Positions 44,901 to 47,900 of a stretch of 64,000 nucleotides of DNA are shown one piece after another. The stretch is from contig JAJNNQ010000154.1 of NCBI GenBank assembly GCA_027886175.1, positions 234,501 through 298,500 of the forward strand, in the 5' to 3' direction. Origin of the DNA: Phylloscopus collybita (Eukaryota > Chordata > Aves > Passeriformes > Phylloscopidae). Under the pieces are notes generated by a model that worked only from the letters and a program-made list of their open reading frames with translations, searched no databases and was not told the DNA's origin. Each line of letters opens with the position of its first letter. Position 1 is the first letter of the stretch. Both the position numbers and the translations under genes were made by a program.

Positions 44901-47900
44901 TTTGTCCTTCTTCCACCCATTGGGTTGTTCTTTGTAAAGAACAACCCAATTTTGTAAAACAGCATAAAATGGAAGAAGTAACCAGAAATAAACGGGGTCA
45001 TTGTCAGCCTTCTGAGTTGGAGTCCGTGTGGTTGTGACCTTTAACAGCATCACCTGTGATGTTTTGGTTTTTCTAAAACTCTTTTCCCAGAGAGTTTTCT
45101 GTCAACAAGAGACACATTTTCCTAATTGTAACCGATTCCTTTTCCTAGGAGGGACTTCTTGATGTCCCTCTGACTTGACCAATGTGCTGGAAAAAGTTTG
45201 TCCTTCTTCCACCCATTGGGTTGTTCTTTATAAAGAACAATGTAATTTTGTAAAATAGCGAAAAAGGGAAAAAGTAACCATAAACAAGCGGGATCATTTT
45301 CAGCCTTCTCAGTTGGAATCCGTGTCGTTGTGACCATGAACAGTGTCACCTGTGATGTTTTAGTTTTTCTAAAACTCTTTTCCCAAAGAGTTTTCTGTCA
45401 TCAAGACAGGTTTTCCTAATTGTAACCTATTCCTTTCCCTAGGAGGGACTTCTTGATGTCCCTCTGACTTGACCAATGTGATAGAAGAAGTTTCTCCTTC
45501 TTCCACCCATTGGCTTGTTCTTTGTGAAGAACAACCCAATTTTGTAAAATAGGGTAAAAGAGAAGAAATTCCCAGAAATAAACGGGGTCATTGTCAGCCT
45601 TCTGAAGTCAGAGCCCGTGCCCCTGTGACCTCTCACGGCGTCACCCCCCTGTGTCCCCAGGTACTACGGGGGGGCCGAGGTGGTGGACGAGATCGAGCTG
45701 CTGTGCGAGCGGCGGGCACTGGACGCCTTCGGCCTGGACCCGGCGCGCTGGGGCGTCAACGTCCAGCCCTACTCGGGCTCCCCGGCCAACTTCGCCGCCT
45801 ACACGGCCCTGCTGCAGCCCCACGAGCGCCTGATGGGGCTGGACCTGCCCGACGGGGGCCAGTACGTGCTGGGGGGAGCCGTGGTGGGGGGGGGATGTCC
45901 TCAAGGTGTCCCTGAGGTGTCCCTGAGGTGTCCCCAGGGTGGCCCTGAGGTGTCCCTGAGGTGTCCCTGAGGTGTCCCTGAGGTGTCCCTGAGGTATCTG
46001 AGCTGGATCTGCCCAATGGGGGCCAGTATGTGGTGGGGGGCCTTGGAGGGGGGAGATGTCCCCAAGGTATCCCTGAGGTGTCCCTGAGATATCCCTGAGG
46101 TGTCCCTGAGGTGTCCCCAGGGTGTACCTGAGATGTCCCTGAGGTGTCCCTAGGGTGTCCCTGAGGTGTCCCCGAGGTGTCCCTGAGATGTCCCCAGGGT
46201 GGCCCCAAGGTGTCCCTGAGGTGTCCTCAAGGTGGCCCTGGGGTGTCCCTGAGATGTCCCTGAGGTATCTGCCCGACAGGGGCCAGTACATGCTGGGGGG
46301 AGCCATGGGGTGGGGGGGATGTCCCCAAGGTGTCCCTGAGGTGTCCCCAGGATGTCCCTGAGGTGTCCCCAAGGTGGCCCTGGGGTGTCCCTGAGATGTT
46401 CCTGAGGTGTCCAAGCTGGACCTGCCCAACGGGGGCCAGTACATGGTGGGGGGACCCATGGGTGGGGAGGTGTCCACAAGGTGTCCCTGAGGTGGCCCCA
46501 GGGTGTCCCTGAGGTGTCCCCAGGGTGGTCCCAAGGTGTCCCCGAGGTGTCCCTGAGGTGTCCCCAAGGTGGCCCTGGGGTGTCCTCAAGGTGGCCCTGG
46601 GGTGTCCCTGAGATGTCCCTGAGATGTCCCTGAGGTATCTGCCCGACAGGGGCCAGTACGTGCTGGGGGGAGCCATGGTGGAGGGGAGATGTCCCCAAGG
46701 TGTCCCTGAGGTGTCCCTGAGGTGTCCCCAGGGTGTCCCCGAGGTGGTCCCAGGGTGGCCCCGAGGTGGCCCTGGGGTGGCCCAGAGATGTCCCTGAGGT
46801 ATCTGCCCAATGGGGGCCAGTACGTGGTGGGGGGAACCATCCATGGGTGGGGGGACGTGGGGCTCGCTGCCCCTCCCGGGGGTCCCGGTCTCACCCCCGT
46901 GCCTCCCCCGCAGCCTCACGCACGGGTACATGACCGACGTCAAGAGGATCTCGGCCACCTCCATCTTCTTCGAGTCCATGCCCTACAAGCTCGATGTGAG
47001 TTGAGGGTCTGTGCGGGAGGGATGAGCCCTGAGGTGTCCCTGAGGTGTCCTCGAGGTGTCCCCAGGGTGTCCCTGAGGTGTCCCTGAGGTGTCCCTGAGG
47101 TGTCCCTGAGGTGTCCCCGAGGTGTCCCTGAGGTGTCCCTGAGGTGTCCAAGCTGCTCTGTCAAACCCCTGCCCTCCCTCCTCTCCCAGGGTGTCCCTGA
47201 GGTGGCCCCGAGGTGTCCCCAAGGTGGCCCTAAAGTGTCCCCAAGGTGTCCCTGAGGTGTCCCCGGGGTGTCCCCGAGGTATCCCCAAGGTGTCCCCCAG
47301 GGTGTCCCTGAGGTGTCCCCAAGGTGTCCCTGAGGTGTCCCCAGGGTGTCCCCGAGGTGTCCCCAGGATGTCCTTGAGGTGTCCCCGAGGTGTCCCCAGG
47401 GTGTCCCTGAGGTGTCCCCAAGGTGGCCCTGAAGTCTCCCTGAGGTGTCCCCAAGGTGTCCCTAAGGTGTCCCCAAGGTGTCCCCGGGGTCTCCCCCTGC
47501 CTGTCTATCCCTGGACTGACCAATCTGTCTGTCCGTCCCCGGGCTGGCTGACCTGTCCGTCTGTCCCCCCCAGCCCAGCACAGGCCTGATCGACTACGCC
47601 CAGCTGGAGGTGACAGCGCGGCTCTTCCGTCCCCGGCTCATCATCGCCGGCACCAGCGCCTACGCCCGGCTCATCGACTACGCCCGCATCAAGAAGGTAC
47701 CTGGGGAGGGCTCTGGGGCCTGGGGTGGGGGCTCTGGGGCTGGCAGGTGACCCCGGTGTCCCCCAGGTGTGTGAGGAGGTCAAGGCCTACCTGCTGGCGG
47801 ACATGGCCCACATCAGCGGGCTGGTGGCGGCCAAGGCCATCCCATCGCCCTTCGAGCACGCGGACGTGGTCACCAGCACCACCCACAAGACCCTGCGGGG

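What the first reader, a model, noticed from the sequence alone, without database searches (positions are those of the whole stretch)
45835..46913. SHMT2 exon-4 tail and its splice donor copied five times in the next intron
The real exon 4 ends ...LDLPDGG-CA|GTACGT at 45861. The following intron holds five more copies of about 37-40 bp covering the last codons and the donor (46001, 46268, 46414, 46638, 46802), spaced by 12-mer repeats. Copies at 46638 and 46802 keep CAGTACGTG exactly. A minisatellite has therefore amplified across an exon-intron border, producing a row of decoy donors before exon 5. They could be silent, be used as alternative donors with frame effects, or buffer donor mutations.
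Basis: seen in the sequence. Interest (0 to 1): 0.75.

Follow-up and report, generated by a model that had tools for sequence, protein, structure and literature searches.

The report
Exon-edge stuttering in songbird SHMT2 intron
In a songbird-like SHMT2 gene the last bases of one exon, together with the splice signal beside them, have been copied five times into the next intron by an expanding short repeat; this is a new example of a recently described bird phenomenon ("exon stuttering") and is most likely a neutral by-product rather than a splicing switch.

Summary
Exon 4 of a bird SHMT2 gene ends at 45861 (CCA|GTACGT). Intron 4 (1,052 bp) holds five diverged copies of the exon tail, its donor and the G-rich intron start, set in an 11-bp minisatellite. 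The copied block is longer than reported: 52-84 aligned columns, 17-24 exon bases. It fits the "exon stuttering" described for chicken dot chromosomes (Hron et al. 2026, PMC12954441), which already notes that splice sites are copied along; I file it as a new member of that kind. The functional reading is weak. By a recalled weight matrix three of five copied donors equal or slightly exceed the real one and two have lost +5G, while 16 other GTs in the intron score as high. Six of eight CpG bases in the copied block carry transitions, as in decaying methylated DNA. All five alternative donors read into the same stop 106 nt past exon 4, so none can buffer a lost donor. None of 161 fetched SHMT2 relatives shows a copied tail. 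Exon-4 skipping is modelled in two warblers but also in reptiles, mammals and fishes. A small mis-splicing cost remains possible; RNA-seq and long reads would decide.

The parts
45661..45861 (+). SHMT2 exon 4 (201 nt); bases 45838-45861 are the copied exon tail
   Evidence: Splicing to an open 452-aa frame; match to human SHMT2; BLAST of exon plus flank
45862..45867 (+). Real exon 4 donor, CCA|GTACGT
   Evidence: DGG-H-LTHG frame across the junction; relatives read GGHLTHG
46002..46082 (+). Copy E1, donor CCA|GTATGT at 46026
   Evidence: 84.5% over 84 columns
46269..46345 (+). Copy E2, donor CCA|GTACAT at 46286 (+5G lost)
   Evidence: 92.2% over 77 columns
46415..46494 (+). Copy E3, donor CCA|GTACAT at 46439 (+5G lost)
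   Evidence: 86.6% over 82 columns
46639..46715 (+). Copy E4, donor CCA|GTACGT at 46656
   Evidence: 93.5% over 77 columns
46803..46854 (+). Copy E5, donor CCA|GTACGT at 46820; runs into the non-repeated end of the intron, 94 nt before exon 5
   Evidence: 80.8% over 52 columns; sequence
45904..46800 (+). 11-bp minisatellite (AGGTGTCCCTG and variants) in which the copies are set
   Evidence: Tandem Repeats Finder; intron 4 is 89% covered by tandem repeats
45968..45970 (+). In-frame stop codon met by every extension of exon 4 to a copied donor
46914..46995 (+). SHMT2 exon 5
47027..47496 (+). Intron 5 array of the same 11-mer family, without exon copies

Best explanation
Exon stuttering by local repeat expansion. 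In a gene whose longer introns are loaded with tandem repeats, duplication spanning the exon 4 / intron 4 border copied up to 24 exon bases, the donor and at least 30-60 intron bases together with an 11-bp minisatellite (shown: the copies; inferred: the process). Slippage, unequal exchange or conversion then multiplied the unit and lengthened what was probably a ~94-nt intron to 1,052 nt (inferred). The exon is untouched because the copies lie on the intron side (shown). The copied donors are not visibly maintained: they decay largely at CpGs (shown). The first donor is used and the copies leave with the intron (inferred from protein models of relatives); accidental use of a copy would meet a premature stop and probably NMD (stop shown, NMD inferred).
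For: Five direct border-spanning copies, 38.2-99.6 bits against a shuffled maximum of 26.3. Source ends exactly at the exon border. Intron 4 is 89% tandem repeat; introns 2, 3, 5, 7 and 9 are 81-88%. 14 of 38 substitutions are CpG transitions; by site 6 of 8 CpG bases against 11 of 60 others changed, Fisher p=0.002. The last copy continues into the unique intron end, leaving 94 nt to exon 5, comparable with the repeat-free 70-nt intron 6. 116 of the first 120 relatives read GGHLTHG at this junction. Same anatomy as published exon stuttering.
Against: Exon-only BLAST falls just under the cut-off of the published screen (40.1 against 42.1 bits). No DNA from another bird could be compared, so recency, polymorphism and dot-chromosome location are unknown. 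The exon was taken as ancestral in the CpG count, secure only where the change alters the protein or +5G; two of the non-CpG sites in E2, E4 and E5 may come from a small deletion rather than substitution. Three of five donors remain intact or nearly so.
Confidence: 0.85

Rival explanations
1. Poison-donor effect: a meaningful share of transcripts uses a copied donor, reads the shared stop and is destroyed by NMD, so the array lowers or tunes SHMT2 output.
For: The real donor is the weakest of 10 by the recalled matrix and three copies equal or slightly exceed it. The copies carry the G6 run as well. E5 would define a short 94-nt intron. All extensions meet one stop.
Against: No RNA evidence was available. 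Copied donors decay at CpGs. 16 other GTs score as high. No model among 161 fetched shows a copied tail, though NMD targets are seldom annotated as proteins.
Confidence: 0.08
2. Backup donors: the copies buffer loss of the real donor or provide alternative protein forms.
For: Three donors equal the real one by the matrix. One of 10 enumerated hypothetical cassette exons ending at a copied donor is open and in frame (46154-46285).
Against: Every simple extension meets the stop at 45968. Lengths are 2, 1, 1, 2 and 1 modulo 3. No evidence of cassette use.
Confidence: 0.02
3. Assembly artefact: fewer or no copies exist in the animal.
For: GC-rich tandem repeats are hard to assemble (general knowledge and the abstracts listed); no reads could be checked.
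Against: Copies differ from one another at many sites and have different spacings.
Confidence: 0.05

Closest known systems
Exon stuttering / sequence stuttering on avian dot chromosomes (Hron et al. 2026, PMC12954441; read: abstract, sections 7, 9 and 16, part 1 of section 8, and passages)
   Same: Edge of a coding exon with its adjacent splice site copied as imperfect direct tandem repeats through the neighbouring intron; source at the exon border; a handful of copies (their median 4, here 5); intron heavily covered by tandem repeats; coding exon intact
   Different: Their exon screen was of chicken and SHMT has no hits in their main text (supplementary list not read). Here the exon part is short (17-24 bp), under the cut-off of their exon-only screen. 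Length variation and dot-chromosome location are untested here
Internal tandem repeats at exon-intron boundaries in human segmental duplications (PMC2812944; passages and abstract seen)
   Same: Minisatellite expansion at an exon-intron boundary that can alter splicing
   Different: There the repeats are reported to generate novel introns in recent primate paralogs; here an existing intron was lengthened
Intron gain from tandem arrays or tandem duplication of proto-splice sites (PMC2891723, passages seen; Zhuo et al. 2007 seen only in reference lists)
   Same: Tandem duplication multiplies splice sites inside a gene
   Different: No new intron position: the junction is shared with relatives, and a cobra model reads through the same donor

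Membership tests
Exon stuttering (Hron et al. [quoted passage not shown]
   Five direct copies of the exon 4 tail in intron 4
Exon stuttering (Hron et al. 2026) | Copied block spans the exon-intron border | tested here: met
   Source 45838 or 45845 through 45861 and on into the intron
Exon stuttering (Hron et al. 2026) | Exon itself left intact | tested here: met
   452-aa open frame over exons 2-11
Exon stuttering (Hron et al. 2026) | Intron heavily covered by tandem repeats | tested here: met
   89% of intron 4
Exon stuttering (Hron et al. 2026) | Passes their screen: exon-only hit of 20 nt or more with bit score 42.1 or more (a detection cut-off, not their definition) | tested here: not met
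   Best hit 24 nt, 40.1 bits; my 50 shuffles gave at most 24.3. BLAST version and gene set differ from theirs
Exon stuttering (Hron et al. 2026) | Intron length varies between individuals | not testable with these tools
   No reads or second individual held
Exon stuttering (Hron et al. 2026) | Location on a dot chromosome (strong association: 190 of their 236 introns) | not testable with these tools
   Own-assembly search did not complete
Intron gain from tandem arrays | A new intron position is created | tested here: not met
   116 of the first 120 relatives share the GGHLTHG junction protein and a cobra model reads through at the same place; intron positions in relatives were not mapped on DNA

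The most novel reading that the evidence does not exclude
The array is a heritable, length-variable poison-donor rheostat: copied donors divert a share of SHMT2 pre-mRNA to NMD, and stuttering-driven changes in copy number between individuals tune SHMT2 output and with it mitochondrial one-carbon capacity.
Probability: 0.04. Interest if true: 0.75.

Novelty: new member of a known kind. Interest (0 to 1): 0.3.

Why it matters
It adds a songbird-like gene to a phenomenon whose exon form has been catalogued in chicken. It shows that a screen with exon-only queries can miss such a locus when the exon part is short, while a border-spanning query finds every copy. It also offers a clean test of whether stuttering burdens splicing: a weak native donor followed by near-equal copies, with every mis-splice marked by the same premature stop.

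Tried and rejected
Buffering of donor mutations: rejected for simple extensions, because all five share one stop.

Exon-4 skipping as an effect of the array: two Sylvia models skip exactly exon 4, but of 161 fetched relatives 11 join exon 3 straight to exon 5, and the other nine are a viper, a gecko, a bat, an elephant seal and five fishes. Some fish hits may be paralogs. My note says four fishes; five is correct.

Other exons: in the same-strand exon-only screen of exons 2-12 the only hits of 20 nt or more were the two from exon 4. With 60-bp flanks (exons 2-11, both strands) exon 2 gave distant GC-rich hits and exon 6 one inverted hit. Four LRP1 pieces and one NXPH4 piece gave one 21-bp match about 4.5 kb away, lying in the intronic flank, and no exon copies.

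Intron 3 array as acceptor copying: its last unit stops at 45645, 15 nt short of exon 4.

Two-copy unit history: suggestive only. Whole-block comparisons did not clearly favour it.

Donor scoring: weight matrix and U1 pairing are recalled, not MaxEntScan. In one search three control donors were indexed one base off, and its U1 energies are not used; one search replaces them.

Papers: searches were listings; only the papers named under Closest known systems, plus one passage of PMC2586383 (a reference entry), were opened.

Full report
What is there. The window carries an SHMT2 gene on the + strand. A three-frame search against solved structures gives human SHMT2 as the best match. Exons 2-11 splice to a 452-aa open frame. 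The closest public proteins are from songbirds: New Caledonian crow, wrentit and Florida scrub jay at 96%; the species itself is not known. Exon 4 (45661-45861) ends in CCA|GTACGT and exon 5 starts at 46914, completing the histidine of DGG-H-LTHG. Intron 4 is 1,052 bp.

The copies. A search with exon 4 and 60 flanking bases finds five direct copies in this intron, aligned over 84, 77, 82, 77 and 52 columns at 84.5, 92.2, 86.6, 93.5 and 80.8% identity (copies 1 to 5). They contain 17-24 exon bases, the donor and 30-60 intron bases, the upper figure being set by the query, with a G6 run at intron +10 in the original and all copies. A border-spanning query scores 38.2-99.6 bits on the five; the best score in 200 mononucleotide shuffles of the rest of the intron was 26.3. 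The spacers are variants of an 11-mer. All 23 exact AGGTGTCCCTG in the window lie in introns 4 and 5 of this gene on the same strand.

How it arose (inferred). The last copy runs into the non-repeated end of the intron, 94 nt before exon 5 (46820 to 46913). That is what tandem duplication of a border-spanning block in a short intron would leave behind; the repeat-free intron 6 is 70 nt. Two sequence classes alternate along the row (C at intron +8 in E0, E2, E4; G in E1, E3, E5), with spacings of 164, 153 and 164 bp inside pairs and 260 and 217 bp between them. This suggests one early duplication followed by multiplication of a two-copy unit. But E5 is mosaic (its upstream junction is that of E2 and E4), strict alternation of a three-three split has a 2-in-20 chance, and whole-block alignments did not clearly favour that register.

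Are the copied donors kept? With the exon as reference, 14 of 38 substitutions in the five copies are CpG transitions. By site, 6 of 8 CpG bases and 11 of 60 other bases changed (Fisher p=0.002). The donor changes themselves, GTACGT to GTATGT once and to GTACAT twice, are CpG transitions. This is the pattern of methylated DNA under little constraint. The reference direction is secure only where the change would alter the protein or the +5G; alignments in the G runs are ambiguous.

Could they be used? By a recalled weight matrix the real donor scores 0.12 bits, the lowest of ten SHMT2 donors scored. E1, E4 and E5 score 0.29, 0.12 and 0.12; E2 and E3 score -3.41. But 19 of 125 other GTs in the intron score at least as high as the real donor; 16 of them are not the copied donors but lie in the G-rich flanks or the 11-mers (sites listed). 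Every extension from exon 4 to a copied donor reads the same stop at 45968-45970, 106 nt past the exon, which excludes rescue of a lost donor and predicts NMD. One of ten enumerated hypothetical cassette exons is open and in frame; nothing supports its use.

Relatives. Of the first 120 listed proteins (of 7,996 scored), 116 contain GGHLTHG; the four without it are a plant protein, two exon-4-skipping Sylvia models and a king cobra model that reads DGG-QYV, i.e. through the donor. The cobra reading suggests that the junction and a GTA-type donor predate birds. Of all 161 fetched, 143 contain GGHLTHG and only the cobra contains GGQY. A targeted search for the read-through was empty. One result bears on arrays elsewhere: the snowfinch model P0134 continues exon 5 as VSCGQGGSEVSQGVPEV before exon 7. 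That looks like the start of intron 5 and a few 11-mers read in frame, joined from an 11-mer GAG|GT. It also reads CLPRSLTHG before exon 5, as does the tree sparrow model P0154, which fits the unique end of intron 4 here. These are predicted models that lack exon 4, perhaps for assembly reasons. They suggest that the intron 5 11-mer and the intron 4 end are shared among songbirds, and that an 11-mer donor can at least enter a gene model. They do not show copied exon tails.

What is known. Hron et al. 2026 (PMC12954441) describe sequence stuttering on chicken dot chromosomes; in its exon form the edge of an exon, with the adjacent donor or acceptor, is copied through the neighbouring intron and creates potential alternative transcripts. 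They report 236 introns in 115 genes, 190 of these introns on dot chromosomes, a median of 4 copies, sources within 1 base of the exon border in more than 90% of cases, and length variation in 183 of 192 exon-stuttering introns tested. They saw local repeat expansions in some other birds too. SHMT, LRP1 and passerine have no hits in their main text; songbird occurs once, in a reference, and zebra finch once. Their supplementary gene list was not read. A search of the paper library for 'sequence stuttering' and 'exon stuttering' returned only that paper. The present locus meets their stated criterion but would fall just under their screen's cut-off (40.1 against 42.1 bits), which shows how such loci can be undercounted.

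Verdict. Real, well above chance, and a new member of a known kind. The most likely reading is neutral local expansion with donors carried along and decaying. A splicing cost or a regulatory effect is possible but unsupported, and is testable with RNA-seq and long reads that could not be reached here.

Noticed in passing
window 44277-45645: Intron 3 holds a 281-301 bp tandem array whose last partial unit ends 15 nt before exon 4, so exon 4 has an array on either side; the acceptor itself is not copied.
   Followed up: partly
window 47027-47496: Intron 5 carries the same 11-mer family as intron 4; a snowfinch SHMT2 model (P0134) seems to read such 11-mers after exon 5.
   Followed up: partly
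window 48667-48726: Inverted copy (83% over 60 columns) of the end of intron 5 and the first 11 nt of exon 6 (47529-47584) lies in intron 8.
   Followed up: no
window 47941-48427 and 48927-49601: Introns 7 and 9 hold further arrays (15-mer; 26/101/245-bp units) and are 87% and 83% tandem repeat.
   Followed up: no
window 41777-43855: Intron 2 is only 16% G+C and 88% tandem repeat in a 62% G+C window.
   Followed up: no
SHMT2 relatives P0115, P0118, P0121-P0129: Frame-keeping skip of SHMT2 exon 4 (67 codons in the warblers) is modelled in two warblers, a viper, a gecko, a bat, an elephant seal and five fishes.
   Followed up: partly
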